A program made the position numbers and the translations under genes. Positions 3,986-20,930 of a stretch of 64,000 bases of DNA are shown in pieces. The first letter of the stretch is position 1; each line of letters begins with the position of its first letter. The stretch comes from a virus: the IMG/VR virus record IMGVR_UViG_3300012944_000025, positions 25,581-89,580 of that record, one strand, 5' to 3'. The notes under the pieces are model-generated. The model worked only from the letters and a program-made list of their open reading frames with translations, was not told the origin of the DNA and made no database searches.

Positions 3986-4114
3986 TTTCCCTTTTGCTCA
4001 TTACATAAGCGTGACGCAGGCGCCCGTCGAGCTTTCGCGGCCGTGCGGATTCGCTCGCGCTGAAAACGACGCGCCAGTCTTGTGTCAATAGCCGAGACAG
4101 GCGCAAAACAAGGC

Positions 4115-4474
4115 ATGTCCAACGTGCTTATCGTTGACGACGTCCCGGACATCACGCACACGATGTCCATTCTGCTCCAGCTTCGCGGGCATCGAACCGC
4201 CGAGGCGTTCACGGGCGCCCAGGCGATACAGCTGATGAGGACCCGCTGCTTCGACGCCTTTCTGCTCGACGTCAGCCTTCCTGACATCAGCGGGATCGAG
4301 GTCGCTCGCGCGGTCCGCCAAAGGTACGGTCAGAAGCCGAAGATACTCGCGGTTACCGGGTGGGGACACCGCGAGATGCGGACGCGCTGCCTCGGCGCGG
4401 GCTTCGACTATCATGTGACGAAGCCGGCGGACGGGCGCCGTATCATCGCGCTCATCGAGCGTGACAAGTCATAG
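4115..4474 (+). CDS. Stand-alone CheY-like response-regulator receiver, 119 aa
   Basis: A full-length receiver domain with no output domain. Key residues are present: acidic pair D8-D9 (V-D-D), phosphoacceptor D52 (L-L-D-V-S-L-P-D), T81 (A-V-T-G) and K103 (V-T-K-P-A-D). In known receivers Asp phosphorylation by a histidine kinase switches the surface used by partners. No kinase is visible in the window, so a host kinase would have to supply phosphate. ATG 4115 gives a canonical receiver start; an in-frame GTG at 4082 would add 11 residues. It is on the plus strand amid minus-strand genes and overlaps the tail of the next minus gene by 23 bases. Confidence 0.88.
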   Translation: MSNVLIVDDVPDITHTMSILLQLRGHRTAEAFTGAQAIQLMRTRCFDAFLLDVSLPDISGIEVARAVRQRYGQKPKILAVTGWGHREMRTRCLGAGFDYHVTKPADGRRIIALIERDKS

Positions 4475-4550
4475 CGACCAGGCAGGTCATGCAGTCGATC
4501 TCGCCGAACGCGAGGTCTCCATCTCGCACTTGCCAGCGCCGATCAGGCAC
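4452..4550 (-). CDS. Minimal D-C-M-T-C-L protein, 32 aa
   Basis: GTG 4550 with GAGG a few bases upstream, overlapping the stop of the preceding small gene (GTGCCTGA). The product is little more than the family signature, ending E-I-D-C-M-T-C-L-V-A-M-T-C-H-A-R. It lacks the upstream G-x-T-H segment, but a C-H pair after the signature could supply ligands. It may instead be a decayed family member. It overlaps the receiver gene's 3' end convergently. Confidence 0.5.
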   Translation of the reverse strand: MPDRRWQVRDGDLAFGEIDCMTCLVAMTCHAR

Positions 4551-4659
4551 GACGCCTCTTGTACGCGCTCACCGCAACGGCGCCCCGACGCCGTGTGTGG
4601 GCCTGCACCCCGGCACCGACGCGTAGCAGTCGGAGCAGGATCCGCAGAAGCGCCTTCAT
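4543..4659 (-). CDS. Small cationic Leu/Arg-rich peptide, 38 aa
   Basis: ATG 4659 has a strong GGAAGG five bases upstream. The first half is Leu-rich and amphipathic (A-L-L-R-I-L-L-R-L-L-R) and the second half very basic. It could be membrane-active or nucleic-acid binding; no family recognised. It overlaps the genes on both sides, which supports it as a real coupled reading frame. Confidence 0.45.
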   Translation of the reverse strand: MKALLRILLRLLRVGAGVQAHTRRRGAVAVSAYKRRRA

Positions 4660-5048
4660 CGGCGCCTTCCACGGATCCAGAACTTCCGCCTCTTGTCGTC
4701 AAAGATCGCTGTCGACTTTCCCGTTGTTCGTGGCGTGCTGATCAGAATCGTGCCGCTCGACCGCGACGACATTCGCCCGGTGCTCGTGCGGAACGGTGGT
4801 AGCGGCGCGCCCGGCGGGCGAACCAAGCACGCCATGCAGTCCACCTCCTTGCCTGGCGCCGCCGGCGTGTTCGCGGGGATGTAGCTCCCCGTGCACCACC
4901 AGCTGCTGCCCTCCTGCGTGACATAGTGGCCCCGTTTCGCGGGGTTGCGCCGACGCTTTTGCTTCGCGGTCTTGACGAACCTGACGGTGCCGCGGACGTG
5001 GTGGGTGACGCCGTGCTCGTCGGTCGCCTCGCTGATCCCCCTGGTCAC
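4656..5048 (-). CDS. D-C-M-x-C-L family protein with long basic tail, 130 aa
   Basis: GTG 5048 overlaps the upstream stop (GTGA). Signature: E-H-G-V-T-H-H, W-W-C-T-G, then E-V-D-C-M-A-C-L-V-R. A basic stretch (K-Q-K-R-R-R-N-P) lies between the His and first Cys. The last 45 residues are Ser/Thr/Arg-rich, which is unusual since the signature sits at the C-terminus in most relatives. Confidence 0.7.
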   Translation of the reverse strand: MTRGISEATDEHGVTHHVRGTVRFVKTAKQKRRRNPAKRGHYVTQEGSSWWCTGSYIPANTPAAPGKEVDCMACLVRPPGAPLPPFRTSTGRMSSRSSGTILISTPRTTGKSTAIFDDKRRKFWIRGRRR

Positions 5049-5233
5049 TTCTTGTTCTTGTAGAATATCGCGATCGTCACGCAGTGATACTCGTTGTCCG
5101 AGGACTGCGTGAGCCGCACGTCGGTGATGACGAACGTCGGGTTGCGCTTGCGCCACGCGGTCACGTCGTCACCCATCTTCTCGCGATCCACATGCTTCGA
5201 TACGCTGAACATCGCCATTCCATCGAAATCCAT
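5045..5233 (-). CDS. Hypothetical protein, 62 aa
   Basis: Well-supported start: AGGAGA precedes ATG 5233. Charged protein with a beta-like C-terminal half (Y-H-C-V-T-I-A-I-F-Y) ending K-N-K-K. No family recognised. It begins a coupled run downstream of the hairpin-containing gap at 5234-5445. Confidence 0.7.
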   Translation of the reverse strand: MDFDGMAMFSVSKHVDREKMGDDVTAWRKRNPTFVITDVRLTQSSDNEYHCVTIAIFYKNKK

Positions 5234-5312
5234 GTCTGTTCTCCTGTTGCCGTGTCCTGACGCTGCGTTGCGTCGCGCCCTCGTCCTCCGCGCGATGTCC
5301 CACCGGCCGTTG

Positions 5313-5361
5313 CCGGGCAGGGACGGAGCGACTGTGGAGGCCGCCGTTCGTCCTTGCCCGG
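5313..5361. other. Long imperfect hairpin in an intergenic gap
   Basis: The gap 5234-5445 holds a 13-bp inverted repeat: left arm 5313-5325, right arm 5349-5361, with one G-T type mismatch and a 23-base loop. There is no following T-run on either strand, so it is not a standard intrinsic terminator. It could be an RNA processing or regulatory structure. Just left-to-right of it (minus strand, 5398 to 5375) a strong AAAGGAG precedes a seven-residue reading frame (GTG...TAG), which may be a leader peptide or chance. Confidence 0.45.
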
Positions 5362-5445
5362 GGCAGCCTGTCGGCTACTTCAGGGGTTTGACGTCCACGG
5401 CGGTCTCCTTTCCGAGGTGCTCAACGGGTGCTGCTTCGCGCGGAT

Positions 5446-5568
5446 CTACGGGATGGTCTTCAGGAAGCCCTCGAGGGTGATCGTGACCTCCGCCTTGTCG
5501 TAGGCGTACTTAGCCGAGGAGCGCTCGGCCGACCGCTGGATTCCGTAGGTCACTTGCGTGGTCTTCAT
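5446..5568 (-). CDS. Small hypothetical protein, 40 aa
   Basis: ATG 5568, with GAAGG upstream inside the end of the preceding gene. Short alpha-beta protein (M-K-T-T-Q-V-T-Y-G...E-V-T-I-T-L-E-G). The preceding gene stops eight bases upstream, so the two are probably co-translated. No family recognised. Confidence 0.6.
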   Translation of the reverse strand: MKTTQVTYGIQRSAERSSAKYAYDKAEVTITLEGFLKTIP

Positions 5569-9513: not shown

Positions 9514-10268
9514 TCGGTGATCCCCTTGGCAGCGAGGTAGTCCTTCTGCGGGATGTACGCGCCGGTGGCCTTGTCCCGGAACCCCCACCCACCGGTCTTG
9601 CGTCCCGCCACGAACAGCGACCAGCTGCCCACGGCGGGGTTCAGCAGGTCCACGCGGTGGAAGTCGTCCCCGCGGATGACGTTGACGGTTCCGGGCATCA
9701 CCACCCGCGTCTCCCCGCCCCGCTCCTCGCGATACCCGCCGGCCAGGACGATCGCCACGGCCAGGTCCCATGGGTGGTTGTGCTGATCGCGATCGGCGTC
9801 CCCGCGGTGGAACTTGTGTAGGAACACAGCGAACGGGAGATCGCTGCCCTCGTCGTCGACGTCGCGCGGTCCCTCGGGCCACAGGTACCATCGCGTGAGG
9901 TACGGATCTCCGTTGGTCGAGATCGTCCGGTTGGGTAGCTTCTCGGTGACCGCCTCGAGCTTGCGAACCACGGTGATCTCGTCGTGCGCGATCAGCCCGA
10001 GTAGCCCTGCGACCCGGTTCGAGGCGAGGACCAGAAGCTCGGCGGCCGAGGACGGCATGGCCTCCTCGATGGCCGCGAGGCGCTGTTGCAGCGCGGGAAC
10101 GTTGACCACGCCGTCCTCGACCGAGCCGTTGGCGATTATCGTTTCAAGGTTGTCGATTCGGCGCTCGAGGACTCGGAGGTCTCGTTCGCGGTCGCTCTTG
10201 ACGAGTTCAAACGCCAATTTCAGGCGCTCGTGGTCCCGTTTCAATGCGTCCATCTCATGCCAGCTCAC
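9510..10268 (-). CDS. Cupin-domain protein with N-terminal coiled coil, 252 aa
   Basis: GTG 10268 has AAGGA at good spacing; ATG 10253 is an alternative. Residues 1-70 are a charged coiled coil (R-D-H-E-R-L-K...R-R-I-D-N-L-E). The C-terminal half is a cupin-like beta barrel with metal-site residues D-Q-H-N-H-P-W and a later D-D-F-H-R-V. Small cupins of this H-N-H-P-W type occur in phages and bacteria, with unassigned substrates. The coiled coil implies oligomerisation or a scaffold role. Confidence 0.75.
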   Translation of the reverse strand: MSWHEMDALKRDHERLKLAFELVKSDRERDLRVLERRIDNLETIIANGSVEDGVVNVPALQQRLAAIEEAMPSSAAELLVLASNRVAGLLGLIAHDEITVVRKLEAVTEKLPNRTISTNGDPYLTRWYLWPEGPRDVDDEGSDLPFAVFLHKFHRGDADRDQHNHPWDLAVAIVLAGGYREERGGETRVVMPGTVNVIRGDDFHRVDLLNPAVGSWSLFVAGRKTGGWGFRDKATGAYIPQKDYLAAKGITE

Positions 10269-10434
10269 GTGTCCTTGCCTTTCTCGCGCGGTGCCGCGCG
10301 TATGAAATTCCTGCGATGACAGGCCAGACGGGCCACGCCGCGCAGCCGAGCGCGACACGCCACCATGGGCCGGTCTTGCGCATCAGTCCGCCGAGCGCCG
10401 CGGTGATGGCCGCCCATACGACCACGATCGTCAC
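10255..10434 (-). CDS. Small membrane protein, two TM segments, 59 aa
   Basis: GTG 10434 overlaps the upstream stop (GTGA). Two hydrophobic stretches (V-T-I-V-V-V-W-A-A-I and A-L-G-C-A-A-W-P-V-W) are separated by a short basic loop, with a highly basic C-terminal tail. By topology it could be a holin-like or membrane-anchoring protein, but no lysis neighbours are present. Confidence 0.65.
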   Translation of the reverse strand: MTIVVVWAAITAALGGLMRKTGPWWRVALGCAAWPVWPVIAGISYARHRARKARTRELA

Positions 10435-12092: not shown

Positions 12093-12582
12093 TGGGCATG
12101 ACCTCGACGCCGGCAATGATCTCCGCGATGACGCCCATGATCGCCTCGAAGGCTTCACTGCCGGGCGTCTGCCACTCCTTGGCGTCCCAGACGGTGACCT
12201 CGACCCATGGCAGAGTCAGGTTCTTCCGATGAAGCAGGTTGACCTGCTCCATCAGCGGGCGCTCCTCTGTCGGCATCCAGTCGACCGACACGCGGTTTGT
12301 TTCGGTCTCGATGACAACGAACGCAGTGCCGTCCTTGAAGTTCGCTCTGGTCGGCCCCGGCACCTTGGCGAACTTCGCTGTGCACTCGGTCACCATCGTG
12401 AGCGCCCGGTTGACCGCTTTGAGCACGATCTTCGCCTCGTTCCCTGGGATCTTGGTGAGGTGGTGCTTCGCGGGCACAAGGATGTTCGGCAGACTGTGGA
12501 ACATGCCCACCGCGACCTCGTGCGCGGTCTTGGGGATCCACTCCTCGACGGTGCCGTCGGCGGGCTCTTCTTTCTTGCTCAT
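12070..12582 (-). CDS. Hypothetical protein, 170 aa
   Basis: ATG 12582 (M-S-K-K-E-E-P) overlaps the upstream stop (ATGA). The long in-frame extension further upstream is Arg-rich and antisense in character. Mixed alpha/beta composition. No family recognised. Confidence 0.7.
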   Translation of the reverse strand: MSKKEEPADGTVEEWIPKTAHEVAVGMFHSLPNILVPAKHHLTKIPGNEAKIVLKAVNRALTMVTECTAKFAKVPGPTRANFKDGTAFVVIETETNRVSVDWMPTEERPLMEQVNLLHRKNLTLPWVEVTVWDAKEWQTPGSEAFEAIMGVIAEIIAGVEVMPNETPAAD

Positions 12583-12977
12583 GATTCTCCTTTCAGCGCG
12601 GCTATCAGAGCGTCCGCGCGGGCGAGCGCGCCCTCGCGCTGTGTGATGAGATCGTCGATCTGGCTCGCTACGCTGGCGAGCAGCCGCTCGACGCTCAGCT
12701 GCGCGAACACCTCCGTGCGTCGCTCGCGTGAGCACGACGCGAGCACCACTTCGCCCGCGTCGCTCTCGACGATCAGTCGCCACTGCCCTCCGGTCTTGCC
12801 GAACACCAGCTTCTCGTTGTCGGTCAGGCCGACGGAGACGCGCACGCTGATGTGCAGGCGGAGGGCCTCCTCGATCTCGCCGATCAGCGTCGAGAGCTTC
12901 GAGTCCAACTCCTGAATTCTCCTGTTCTTCGATCCGACCGCGGCCAACACGTCGGGAAGTTTGGCGTTATCTGGCAT
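12579..12977 (-). CDS. Hypothetical coiled-coil protein, 132 aa
   Basis: AAGGA upstream of ATG 12977, within a repeated 24-base element. Residues 15-40 form a coiled coil (R-R-I-Q-E-L-D-S-K-L). A beta region and a helical C-terminus follow. No family recognised. Confidence 0.7.
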   Translation of the reverse strand: MPDNAKLPDVLAAVGSKNRRIQELDSKLSTLIGEIEEALRLHISVRVSVGLTDNEKLVFGKTGGQWRLIVESDAGEVVLASCSRERRTEVFAQLSVERLLASVASQIDDLITQREGALARADALIAALKGES

Positions 12978-12980
12978 GCT

Positions 12981-13004
12981 TATCCTTCGAGCGCCTCGCG
13001 CTCC
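12981..13004. repeat. 24-bp direct repeat, copy A
   Basis: Matches 13245-13268 at 23 of 24 positions in the same orientation. Copy A lies between the lanthipeptide-like gene and the next gene, and on the minus strand can be read as E-R-E-A-L-E-G-stop, echoing the MazG-like protein's C-terminus (E-E-R-K-A-L-E-G-stop). It also carries the AAGGA ribosome-binding site for the gene starting at 12977. Confidence 0.8.
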
Positions 13005-13009
13005 GCGCC

Positions 13010-13231
13010 TTACGGAGTCTGTCCCGTCGGTGGGACGACGGTCGCGGTGCCGCAGGTGTCCGTGTCATTGCAGGTCGCGCTGGCGCAGCCGACCGTGCAG
13101 TTGCGCCGCGTCACGCAACCGATGCTTGCCGGGCAACCAGCGACGGAACCTCCGCCGACGCGGGCGAGCTGCACGCTCCCGAGGTGAAGAATCGTCTCAC
13201 GCGCCAACACCAGACGTTTTGACTTGATCAT
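13010..13231 (-). CDS. Class I lanthipeptide-precursor-like peptide, 73 aa
   Basis: The N-terminus matches the leader pattern K-x-L-x-L-x-x-E-T-[LI]-x-x-L-x-x-x-x-L-x-x-V-x-G-G of class I lanthipeptide precursors (the leader type frequent in Myxococcota and Bacteroidota): here R6-L-V-L, E12-T-I, L17, L22, V25 and G26-G27-G28. The 45 residues after the triple Gly form a core-like region with six Cys (33, 39, 45, 49, 54, 60) among many Ser and Thr. In characterised systems LanB/LanC dehydrate Ser/Thr and cyclise with Cys, and a peptidase cuts after the Gly motif. No such enzymes are visible here. A disulfide-rich or zinc-binding protein is the main alternative. Flanked by 24-bp direct repeats. 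Confidence 0.7.
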   Translation of the reverse strand: MIKSKRLVLARETILHLGSVQLARVGGGSVAGCPASIGCVTRRNCTVGCASATCNDTDTCGTATVVPPTGQTP

Positions 13232-13243
13232 GTTGCTTCGTTC

Positions 13244-13630
13244 CTATCCTTCGAGCGCCTTGCGCTCCTCTTCCAGGTTGCGATTGAGGGCCTTGTGCGA
13301 GTCGAACTTGTCGCCGTACCGCACCTTGAGCTTCGCGATGTTCCGCTCGTGCGCCTCGGAGATGGAGCGCTTGATCGCGTGAAGCATCACGGCCTGGTAC
13401 CAGGACAGGTCCCCGTTCTCCTCGAGGATGTTGACCTCGTCGAGCGCCTTGCCGTAGATGATGTGCTTCTTCAGCGCGTCGGCCAGCTCGCCGACCTCGC
13501 TCGACATGCCGAGCACGGCGTGGATCAGACGGGCGACGACGACGTCGTGATCATGATCCCCTCCGAGCCTGACGAAGTCCGGGGTACTTTCGGTGCGCAG
13601 GGCGTCCTCTTGGTACTGGTTGTCGTTCAT
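13244..13630 (-). CDS. MazG-like nucleotide pyrophosphohydrolase, 128 aa
   Basis: All-alpha NTP-PPase type. Metal-binding pattern S-S-E-V-G-E-L-A-D, then K-K-H-I-I-Y-G-K and E-E-N-G-D-L-S-W-Y, which correspond to the E-x-x-E and E-x-x-D helices of the MazG/iMazG fold. Such enzymes hydrolyse (d)NTPs to monophosphate and pyrophosphate; in phages they are linked to house-cleaning or to lowering ppGpp. ATG 13630 is chosen (M-N-D-N-Q-Y-Q-E); a longer start at 13657 is possible. Its 3' end contains one copy of the 24-bp repeat. Confidence 0.82.
   Translation of the reverse strand: MNDNQYQEDALRTESTPDFVRLGGDHDHDVVVARLIHAVLGMSSEVGELADALKKHIIYGKALDEVNILEENGDLSWYQAVMLHAIKRSISEAHERNIAKLKVRYGDKFDSHKALNRNLEEERKALEG
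13245..13268. repeat. 24-bp direct repeat, copy B
   Basis: Overlaps the last codons and stop of the MazG-like gene (minus strand E-E-R-K-A-L-E-G-stop). Pairs with 12981-13004; one mismatch. The two copies bracket the lanthipeptide-like gene with nothing else between them. Confidence 0.8.
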
Positions 13631-13678
13631 GCGATGTTTATCCCATGAGCAAAGCACCCCGTCACATGCTTATGCCAA

Positions 13679-15970: not shown

Positions 15971-16179
15971 GAGGATGCCTTGTATTCGATCGTATCAGGA
16001 GCCACGACCATCGTGTATTCACCCGGACCGAGGCTTGTCGGGCGAACACGAAGGTCGTGACCGACCTGCCCTTCGTCTTTTCGACGCGTCGGGCCGTAAA
16101 CCCAGACTTCGACCAAGTCCCTAGTGTTGCCAGGGCCGATGCTACGAATCCAGTTTGCAAGTCTAGGTTTGTTGCTCAT
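15967..16179 (-). CDS. Hypothetical protein, 70 aa
   Basis: ATG 16179 overlaps the upstream stop (ATGA). Mixed beta protein (E-V-W-V-Y-G-P). No family recognised. Confidence 0.65.
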   Translation of the reverse strand: MSNKPRLANWIRSIGPGNTRDLVEVWVYGPTRRKDEGQVGHDLRVRPTSLGPGEYTMVVAPDTIEYKASS

Positions 16180-16946
16180 TGTCGCTTTCCTTGCAGCTGA
16201 ATCAACGGAGGCCCCGCAACTCTCTTCTCTGAAGAGAAGCAGAACCTGCACGCCGCGCACGCGCCTTCGTGCTCGGCGCCGTCGCGGGCGGTGGCCGGGC
16301 AGGCGCGCGGCTCAGGATCCCACTGCGCCCGCCTGGACATCTTGTGCTCCTCGAACACGACGGACACCCAGCGCGGGACCTTGTCCTCCGGGCTCCTGCG
16401 CGCCCACGCCGCATAGAACTGCGGCCTGTTCTTCAGGACGAGCAGCCGTGTGGCCTCGGTGTTCGTCCGTGTCGTCGTGGAGTCCAAGCTGAGCATGACG
16501 TGCAGGTTCGGTAGGTTTGGTAACAAACCTGCCAGCTCGAGCTTCCGGGTCGCCACCCACACGGCCAACTCCGGGAACTCGACGGCGATGCACGTCGTGA
16601 AGAACACCGATCCCGGTTGGAGGTCGCCGACGCCGAACATCCGTACGAAGTTCTGTTTTTTCAAAACAGCTCTGGCGATGCGCCGGGCCTCGTGCCGGAG
16701 TACGGCCTTGTCGGCGGACGCGAAGAACGCCGCGTTGCGCGCCTGCGACGCGAGGGCCGCGTCGTACGTCAGGCGACCGAGGAGGCCGTAGCAGTACTCG
16801 GCGCAACCCTTGGTCGGCCTGCACGTCCGCGCGATGGCGACGTTGATCGAGCAGCCGGTCTTGGAGTTGGTGGAGAGGGACACCTCGAACGCGTCGGCGA
16901 GACCGAGCCGCGGCGTTCGACCGCGGATGACGGACAGACGGCTCAT
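16176..16946 (-). CDS. GP88-like phage protein, 256 aa
   Basis: Resembles the 'Gene product 88' family described from mycobacteriophages. N-terminal N-S-K-T-G-C-S followed by T-C-R-P-T-K-G-C-A-E-Y-C-Y, a central G-V-G-D-L-Q-P-G, and a C-terminal C-P-A-T-A ... C-A-A-C-R-F-C cluster. The conserved Cys sets suggest metal or Fe-S binding. Biochemical role of the family is not established. ATG 16946. Confidence 0.72.
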   Translation of the reverse strand: MSRLSVIRGRTPRLGLADAFEVSLSTNSKTGCSINVAIARTCRPTKGCAEYCYGLLGRLTYDAALASQARNAAFFASADKAVLRHEARRIARAVLKKQNFVRMFGVGDLQPGSVFFTTCIAVEFPELAVWVATRKLELAGLLPNLPNLHVMLSLDSTTTRTNTEATRLLVLKNRPQFYAAWARRSPEDKVPRWVSVVFEEHKMSRRAQWDPEPRACPATARDGAEHEGACAACRFCFSSEKRVAGPPLIQLQGKRQ

Positions 16947-19502: not shown

Positions 19503-20051
19503 TCAGTACTCCACGATGTCCGCGGGCACGTCGTGGTCCCCGAGGGGCTGCTGCGCCCGGACGGTCACGCGACCCGACGGCGTCACGCGGATCAGCGTGA
19601 CCGTCTGCCTCTTGTCGACCCAGCCCTTGACGGGACCCGACAGGATGTCGACGCACTGCTCCGGGCTGCTCAGGCTCTCCGCGATGCAAGACATGCTGCG
19701 CGGGCACCCCTCGCAGATTCGACCGGGCTCGTCGACGGGGACCAGCGCCCGCGTCGGAACGAGCACCTGCTTGCCCTCGAGCTGGAGTTTGCGCAGGTAG
19801 ACCCTCAGGGCCCCGGCGTTGACCTCCGTGCGGATGGCATCCCGGAGTTCCGGGTCCGGGATCAGCGCGTTCTGTTGGGCGGCCCCGAGACGCCACATCA
19901 CGGGGTGCTTGATGGCGTCGATCGCGTAGATGAGGCGGGCGACCGCCTGAATGGGCAGGTCGAACATGCGCGCCAGAACCTCGGCGAGGTCCTTCTCCAC
20001 CCCCGCGACGTTGGTCTCGCGGAGGGCTTGCTTGAGTCTCTCGGTGGGCAT
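19503..20051 (-). CDS. C-x-x-C-P-x-x-M-S-C motif protein, 182 aa
   Basis: ATG 20051 with AGGAG upstream. Helical N-terminal domain (about residues 1-80) and a C-terminal part holding I-C-E-G-C-P-R-S-M-S-C-I and a beta-rich end. The larger in-frame extension upstream is antisense to thyX. Divergent from thyX, with which it shares a 45-base promoter gap containing the 15-bp palindrome-like element. Confidence 0.7.
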   Translation of the reverse strand: MPTERLKQALRETNVAGVEKDLAEVLARMFDLPIQAVARLIYAIDAIKHPVMWRLGAAQQNALIPDPELRDAIRTEVNAGALRVYLRKLQLEGKQVLVPTRALVPVDEPGRICEGCPRSMSCIAESLSSPEQCVDILSGPVKGWVDKRQTVTLIRVTPSGRVTVRAQQPLGDHDVPADIVEY

Positions 20052-20069
20052 AGCGTCTCCTGGTCGGTT

Positions 20070-20084
20070 GATTATAAGATAAAC
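20070..20084. promoter_or_regulatory. 15-bp operator/promoter-like element, thyX copy (degenerate)
   Basis: GATTATAAGATAAAC in the divergent gap between 20051 (minus) and thyX (plus). It matches the perfect palindrome at 28920-28934 at 11 of 15 positions and keeps the TAAAC half. It ends 12 bases before the thyX start codon and just before GGAGG. Confidence 0.45.
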
Positions 20085-20096
20085 AGCGGAGGAAAC

Positions 20097-20930
20097 ATGT
20101 ACTCGACACGCGTCTTGAAGGACTCGCTCGCACCCTGCGGCAAGCGGCTGACCACCTGGGAGCTTACCTACCCTCGGTTCGTTCACGCCGAGCTGATGAC
20201 GCACCGGATGTTCAGCCGAAACAGCGCGTCCAGCCGCGCGATCCCCACCGAGAAGCTGATGGCTCGGGTCCGGGAGGACCCCGCGCTGCCCCAGTGGTGG
20301 GGCAGGAACCAGTCTGGCATGCAGGCGAACGAGGAGCTGGACGGCGCCTCGCGGGCCGAGGCCGAGCGCCTCTGGCTGGCCGCACGGGACCAGATGCTCG
20401 TGGCCGTCGAGCAGCTCGGCAAGGTCGGGCTTCACAAGCAGCTCGCGAACCGGCTCATCGAGCCGTGGATGTTCATCACGGTCCTCGTCTCCTCGACTGA
20501 GTACAGCAACTGGTTTCACCTGCGCAACCACCGCATGGCCCAGCCGGAGATTGCCTGGGTTGCCAGGGCCATGTGGCAGCACTACCAGGAGCACCGACCG
20601 ACCGAGATTCCCGAGGGTGGGTGGCATCTTCCGCTGGTCCAGCCCGAGGAGGTCACCGCCCTCGGCGAAGTGATGGCGAAGAAGGTGTCCACCGGGCGCT
20701 GCGCCCGCGTGTCGTACCTGACCCACGAGGGTGTTCGCGATCCGGACAAGGACGTCGAGCTGCACGACAGGCTGTGCTCGGGGCCGGCGACCGGCGAGCC
20801 CGGCCACTGGTCCCCGTTCGAGCACGTCGCAATGGCGCTCGTGGAACCCGTGCGCAGCGGCAACTTTTTGGGTTGGGCTCAGTACCGAAAAGCGTTCGAC
20901 ACGGAGCACTTCGGCGATCGGATGCCCTAA
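20097..20930 (+). CDS. thyX: Flavin-dependent thymidylate synthase ThyX, 277 aa
   Basis: Makes dTMP from dUMP using methylene-tetrahydrofolate, FAD and NADPH. The ThyX signature appears as T-H-R-M-F-S-R-N-S-A-S-S-R (family R-H-R-x-x-S-x-N-x-x-S-x-R; the first Arg is Thr here). A C-terminal H-W-S-P-F-E-H-V and a following Q-Y-R-K are also family features. GGAGG precedes ATG 20097. Length is in the normal range. Phage ThyX keeps dTTP synthesis going independently of host ThyA. It is a single plus-strand gene ending convergently against 20927. Confidence 0.93.
   Translation: MYSTRVLKDSLAPCGKRLTTWELTYPRFVHAELMTHRMFSRNSASSRAIPTEKLMARVREDPALPQWWGRNQSGMQANEELDGASRAEAERLWLAARDQMLVAVEQLGKVGLHKQLANRLIEPWMFITVLVSSTEYSNWFHLRNHRMAQPEIAWVARAMWQHYQEHRPTEIPEGGWHLPLVQPEEVTALGEVMAKKVSTGRCARVSYLTHEGVRDPDKDVELHDRLCSGPATGEPGHWSPFEHVAMALVEPVRSGNFLGWAQYRKAFDTEHFGDRMP

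What the first reader, a model, noticed from the sequence alone, without database searches (positions are those of the whole stretch)
13010..13231. Phage-encoded peptide with a class I lanthipeptide-type leader and a six-Cys, Ser/Thr-rich core
The leader pattern (K-x-L-x-L ... E-T-[LI] ... L ... L-x-x-V-x-G-G) matches residue by residue, and the region after the triple Gly has six Cys amid many Thr and Ser. RiPP precursors are rare in phage genomes. The phage might supply a precursor to host LanB/LanC enzymes, a decoy substrate, or a superinfection or competitor weapon. No modifying enzyme was seen in these 64 kb.
Basis: partly seen in the sequence, partly recalled or inferred. Interest (0 to 1): 0.85.

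Follow-up and report, generated by a model that had tools for sequence, protein, structure and literature searches.

The report
Phage orphan lanthipeptide-type precursor gene
A bacterial virus carries a small gene that looks like the raw material for a ring-bearing, often antibiotic-like peptide but none of the enzymes to finish it; several unrelated viruses carry similar enzyme-less genes, so viruses may borrow or jam the host's peptide-making machinery.

Summary
The 73-aa ORF at 13010-13231 (-) exists as described. It fills the gap between two genes of an uncultivated 89.6-kb contractile-tailed phage, and a 24-bp direct repeat flanks it like an inserted cassette. Its leader is the only match in the record to NCBI's class I lanthipeptide leader model NF038153, but below the curated cut-off (13.7 vs 22 bits); shuffled genomes do not reproduce it. 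All six Cys have Ser/Thr 3-4 residues upstream.

It is not alone. Leader-pattern scans of IMG/VR gave at least six further phages (seven records) with leader-bearing, mostly Cys-rich small ORFs; one phage has two. LanB and LanC were not found in any of these records. In bacteria the same leader sits beside LanB/LanC/C39 genes, and 14/14 tested genomes with the leader have LanB versus 0/16 without. A phage gene shared with one of these relatives occurs in 164/193 Myxococcota and 0/149 Acidobacteriota genomes, suggesting a myxococcotal host.

Best reading: an enzyme-less class I lanthipeptide-type precursor handed to host LanB/LanC. Whether the outcome is an active peptide or enzyme blockade is unknown. 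Modification is inferred, not shown. New variant of a known kind.

The parts
13010..13231 (-). 73-aa orphan precursor-like peptide gene (whole ORF)
   Evidence: ORF list and sequence; only NF038153 match in the record
13148..13231 (-). leader, residues 1-28 (MIKSKRLVLARETILHLGSVQLARVGGG), ending in a double-Gly type site
   Evidence: NF038153 residues 4-28 vs profile 8-32, 13.7 bits, below cut-off 22; own leader HMMs; alignment with phage relatives
13013..13147 (-). core, residues 29-73, six Cys and 12 Ser/Thr; all six Cys have Ser/Thr at -3 or -4
   Evidence: 6/6, shuffle mean 2.6, P = 0.005, offsets chosen after looking
12981..13004 (.). 24-bp direct repeat, copy downstream of the peptide gene (holds the ribosome-site region of the next gene)
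   Evidence: 96% identical to the second copy; only two copies in the window
13245..13268 (.). 24-bp direct repeat, copy at the 3' end of the upstream gene
   Evidence: start-to-start spacing 264 bp
13244..13657 (-). upstream gene, MazG-like protein (weak Pfam match)
   Evidence: PF03819 E = 0.00097, under its cut-off; six viral relatives lack the peptide gene beside it
12579..12977 (-). downstream gene, unknown function
   Evidence: ORF; no Pfam match
5045..5233 (-). 62-aa protein; homologue directly precedes the peptide gene of phage G151 and is near-universal in Myxococcota (host clue)
   Evidence: 43% identity to G151 20039-20236; 164/193 Myxococcota vs 0/149 Acidobacteriota genomes

Best explanation
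The gene is an enzyme-less precursor of the class I lanthipeptide type carried by the phage as a small insertable cassette. During infection the leader (K-x-L-x-L-x-x-E-T-I...L..V-x-GG) is recognised by a host LanB dehydratase; host LanB/LanC then dehydrate Ser/Thr and close thioether rings with the six Cys, and a host C39-type peptidase/transporter cuts after the Gly motif. The most likely use is a phage-specified cyclic peptide made with host enzymes (released at lysis, exported, or acting inside the cell). Shown: the gene, its leader resemblance, the linkage of that leader to LanB in bacteria, the recurrence in several phages, and no LanB/LanC found in any of those records. Inferred: recognition, modification, cleavage and benefit to the phage.
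For: Leader is the record's only NF038153 match and exceeds shuffled and viral controls. In bacteria the same leader lies beside LanB (PF04738 + PF14028), LanC (PF05147) and, in one case, a C39 ABC transporter, and tracks LanB across genomes: 14/14 with the leader have PF14028, 0/16 without. One bacterial genome (G089) has eight leader peptides, seven of them more than 800 kb from either LanB gene, so unlinked precursors look normal there. At least six other phages have leader peptides with variable, mostly Cys-rich cores; five of them were checked and carry clear phage genes. Conserved leader with variable core is the RiPP precursor signature. All six Cys have Ser/Thr at -3/-4. Host likely Myxococcota, where such systems occur.
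Against: NF038153 score is below the curated cut-off in this and every other phage peptide. The host is inferred from one small gene, and only two phyla were compared; most Myxococcota sampled lack the leader (13/146 have it). No direct evidence of expression or modification. Cores of some phage relatives are Cys-poor (one Cys in G152). No relatives of this exact peptide were found, so selection on it cannot be measured.
Confidence: 0.5

Rival explanations
1. Decoy: the peptide competes for host LanB (or the C39 transporter) and blocks the host from making its own lanthipeptide, which may be anti-phage or a competitive trait. Whether the core is modified is secondary.
For: Only the precursor is carried, never enzymes; leader conserved, core free to vary. 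Phage G004 also has a leader-like ORF that stops right after the leader (10188-10280). Lanthipeptides that act inside the cell against phages are reported in Streptomyces (reviewed in PMC12360287).
Against: A pure decoy needs no core, yet this core has six Cys each with Ser/Thr 3-4 residues upstream. The G004 leader-only ORF may be a decayed copy. No anti-phage lanthipeptide is known in Myxococcota to my knowledge.
Confidence: 0.2
2. Passenger: a host precursor gene recently picked up by recombination (24-bp repeats) with no function for the phage.
For: Flanking direct repeat and absence next to the MazG-like gene in six relatives; no homologues found.
Against: Recurrence in at least six other phages and two peptides in one phage; sister phages G005 and G153 both have one, with different cores; ORF intact.
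Confidence: 0.15
3. Precursor of another double-Gly-leader RiPP or an unmodified exported peptide, for example one modified by a radical SAM enzyme, with Cys forming thioethers of a different kind or disulfides.
For: The G152/G155 phage peptide also weakly matches the rSAM-target leader TIGR04149 (11.9 vs cut-off 25); G151 encodes a radical SAM protein.
Against: NF038153 outscores it; in sampled Myxococcota and Acidobacteriota genomes the leader coincides with LanB in 14/14. The rSAM genomic association was not tested.
Confidence: 0.1
4. Unrelated small folded zinc or disulfide protein, or a non-coding ORF; the leader match is coincidence.
For: Sub-threshold family score; modest codon signal; no homologues.
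Against: Shuffle and viral controls, snug fit between two genes, same architecture in other phages, no confident fold.
Confidence: 0.05

Closest known systems
NCBIfam NF038153 lant_leader_L1a (class I lanthipeptide leader)
   Same: Residue-by-residue leader layout over profile positions 8-32 (K-x-L-x-L-x-x-E-T-[ILV]-x2-L-x4-L-x2-V-x-GG), Cys/Ser/Thr-rich core after it
   Different: 13.7 bits against a cut-off of 22; encoded in a phage without LanB/LanC
Myxococcota and Acidobacteriota LanB/LanC clusters (e.g. Archangium lansinium L064, L065; acidobacterial MAG L062, L063)
   Same: Same leader, short Cys-rich cores; some genomes have precursors far from LanB
   Different: Bacterial loci carry the enzymes; no full-length similarity to the phage peptide
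Phage-borne biosynthetic gene clusters (Dragos et al. 2021, doi 10.1016/j.cub.2021.05.046, as summarised in PMC10452541; sublancin on SPbeta, from my own knowledge)
   Same: Phage-encoded bacteriocin/RiPP genes
   Different: Those were found as gene clusters, mostly in temperate phages; here only a precursor is carried, in phages with and without a detected integrase
In-trans substrates of promiscuous lanthipeptide synthetases (prochlorosins/ProcM; own knowledge)
   Same: Precursors unlinked to the enzyme with conserved leader and diverse core
   Different: ProcM is a class II enzyme of cyanobacteria; here the proposed enzyme is LanB and the precursor is viral

Membership tests
Class I lanthipeptide precursor (NF038153) | Leader scoring above the curated cut-off of 22 bits | tested here: not met
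   13.7 bits, E = 0.053; 14.7 bits in the whole-record search
Class I lanthipeptide precursor (NF038153) | Leader motif with double-Gly type end | tested here: met
   Sequence; alignment A6
Class I lanthipeptide precursor (NF038153) | Core with Cys and Ser/Thr able to form thioether rings | tested here: met
   6 Cys, 12 Ser/Thr, 6/6 Cys with Ser/Thr at -3/-4
Class I lanthipeptide gene cluster | LanB dehydratase in the same record | tested here: not met
   No PF04738 or PF14028 match; PF14028 rang in two positive-control genomes
Class I lanthipeptide gene cluster | LanC cyclase in the same record | tested here: not met
   No PF05147 match
Class I lanthipeptide | Lanthionine or methyllanthionine rings installed by LanB/LanC | not testable with these tools
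   Needs co-expression and mass spectrometry
Class I lanthipeptide | LanB present in the phage's own host | tested here: inconclusive
   Host only inferred as Myxococcota; 13/146 sampled genomes of that phylum carry the leader, and the 11 of these that were tested all carry LanB
rSAM-modified GG-leader RiPP (TIGR04149) | Leader match above cut-off | tested here: not met
   No match for the window peptide
Folded zinc/disulfide protein | Confident fold across the Gly motif | tested here: inconclusive
   AlphaFold2 single sequence, pLDDT 52, pTM 0.24

The most novel reading that the evidence does not exclude
Several unrelated lineages of phages, probably including phages of myxobacteria and relatives, have independently taken up stand-alone lanthipeptide precursor genes that use the host's LanB/LanC in trans, so phages specify new cyclic peptides (or jam host peptide production) with a gene of about 220 bp.
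Probability: 0.45. Interest if true: 0.82.

Novelty: new variant of a known kind. Interest (0 to 1): 0.66.

Why it matters
Searches for phage-borne natural products usually look for enzymes, so enzyme-less precursors would be missed. If phages hand substrates to host RiPP enzymes, it is a very cheap way to gain a weapon, exclude other phages, or disable host chemical defence, and it points to a testable set of peptides. Anti-phage lanthipeptides acting inside Streptomyces cells (PMC12360287) make the counter-defence version concrete.

Tried and rejected
Direct homologue searches with the 73-aa peptide in viral contigs, genome contigs and GenBank phages found nothing; tblastn of two phage relatives and one bacterial relative against GenBank phages also found nothing. 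Pattern matches L012/L016/L017, L069-L071, L073-L075, L077, L078, L081-L083 and L109 were inspected and rejected as unrelated ORFs. G003 (L013) is a weak, uncertain member: it matches the pattern but not NF038153. A broader N-terminal pattern (101 stretches, 80 retrievable) gave no further member. tRNA-based host assignment failed because the window phage has no tRNA. A structure prediction without an alignment was uninformative. PF04738 gave no positive-control signal, so PF14028 was used for the LanB conclusion. Whether the window phage has an integrase was not systematically tested.

Full report
Observation. The window is part of an 89,580-bp IMG/VR virus record, of which it forms bases 25581-89580. 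Phage genes in the window include a GpA-type terminase, a baseplate wedge protein, a DNA helicase and a ribonucleotide reductase, so it is probably a contractile-tailed phage. The ORF fills a gap between two genes on the same strand, 12 bp after one and 32 bp before the next.

Cassette signature. A 24-bp direct repeat (96% identical, only two copies in the window) brackets the gene: one copy is the 3' end of the upstream MazG-like gene, the other lies just before the downstream gene. The repeat spacing is 264 bp. Six viral relatives of the upstream gene have no such peptide beside it. This suggests insertion of a small cassette (inference).

Leader. NF038153 (class I lanthipeptide leader L1a) matches residues 4-28 with 13.7 bits, E = 0.053, below the cut-off of 22. 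Searching the whole record in six frames it is the only match, E = 0.005. A model built from bacterial leaders alone ranks it first in its record at 10.6 bits. 150 dinucleotide-preserving shuffles gave none at that score, and 247 kb of other viral DNA peaked at 6.2 bits. A model from the other phage leaders gives 16.7 bits, but those phages were found with a pattern based on this leader, so that number is partly circular.

Core. Six Cys and 12 Ser/Thr follow the Gly run. Every Cys has a Ser or Thr three or four residues upstream (S29-C33, S36-C39, T41-C45, T46-C49, S51-C54, T57-C60); shuffling the core gives 2.6 on average and 6 in 0.5% of trials. The offsets were chosen after looking, so this is suggestive only; not all phage relatives show it.

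Relatives in phages. Leader-pattern scans of IMG/VR with inspection gave: G004 (64.7 kb), G005 (53 kb) and its sister phage G153 (52 kb) with a different peptide, G151 (57.7 kb), G152 (89.9 kb) and the near-identical fragment G155, and G154 (97 kb) with two peptides. G151 has a second leader followed by a Cys-containing stretch in another frame after a run of G. Phage genes were confirmed: integrase, terminase, portal, capsid in G004; tail sheath, baseplate, terminase in G005; terminase in G151; integrase, portal, capsid, baseplate in G152; capsid, portal, terminase in G154. G153 shares much of its genome with G005 and G155 with G152. Apart from these pairs the phages share few genes, so the peptides sit in several unrelated phages. 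Most cores have 3-10 Cys; G152/G155 have one.

No enzymes. LanB (PF04738, PF14028) and LanC (PF05147) were not found in the window phage or in any of these records; PF14028 rang in both positive-control genomes. Records may be fragments.

Relatives in bacteria. In an Archangium genome and an acidobacterial MAG the leader lies next to LanB and LanC, and in the MAG also a C39-peptidase transporter. Of 146 sampled Myxococcota 13 have the leader, and of 199 Acidobacteriota 4. PF14028 is present in 14 of 14 tested genomes with the leader and 0 of 16 without. In G089 eight leader peptides lie at five places, and only one place is near a LanB gene, so precursors served from a distance are plausible in these hosts.

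Host. The window phage has a 62-aa gene (5045-5233) whose homologue in G151 overlaps the start of the G151 peptide gene by 4 bp. It occurs in 164 of 193 Myxococcota and 0 of 149 Acidobacteriota genomes. This favours a myxococcotal host for the window phage and G151, though other phyla could not be compared.

Mechanism. I think it most likely that the peptide is processed by host LanB/LanC (0.5). What the product does is open: a cyclic peptide released or acting in the cell, or competition with the host's own precursor. Reports of lanthipeptides acting inside Streptomyces cells against phages (PMC12360287) make a counter-defence decoy reasonable; the well-formed core argues for a product.

Prior work. 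Phage-borne gene clusters, mostly bacteriocins in temperate phages, are known (doi 10.1016/j.cub.2021.05.046, summarised in PMC10452541), and host RiPPs have been linked to phages by co-expression in the ocean (PMC11118758). Seven searches of the held open-access library found no description of enzyme-less class I precursors in phages; absence from that library is not proof of novelty.

Noticed in passing
G004 (IMGVR_UViG_3300005842_000004) 10188-10280 (-), L031: A 30-aa ORF that is almost only a leader (MSRKLKLTRETIRLLAVQALD, then stop) in the same phage that has a full precursor; a decayed copy or a leader-only decoy.
   Followed up: partly
G151 (IMGVR_UViG_3300042983_000003) about 5035-5190 (+), L085: A second leader peptide whose Cys/Thr-containing tail is in a different frame after a run of G; sequencing error, pseudogene or frameshift.
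   Followed up: partly
window 5045-5233 (-): 62-aa protein without a Pfam match, near-universal in Myxococcota (164/193 genomes, usually one or two copies) and absent from 149 Acidobacteriota; function unknown.
   Followed up: partly
G002:C255 (L062) about 4000-5450 (+): Acidobacterial MAG with six tandem Cys-rich leader peptides upstream of a LanB gene; cores (CTTTDTCTDTC...) resemble the core of phage G004 (CTTTDWCTETC...).
   Followed up: partly
G154 (IMGVR_UViG_3300020581_000008), L096-L100: Phage with two precursor-like peptides also matches phrog_1211 (listed as 2-aminooxy adenylosuccinate synthetase), a gene type I associate with phages with modified adenine in their DNA, and has a Band 7/SPFH protein just after one peptide.
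   Followed up: no
window 16176-16946 (-): Protein 47% identical to one in L005 with a Cys-rich motif, possibly related to mycobacteriophage GP88 (name from memory).
   Followed up: no
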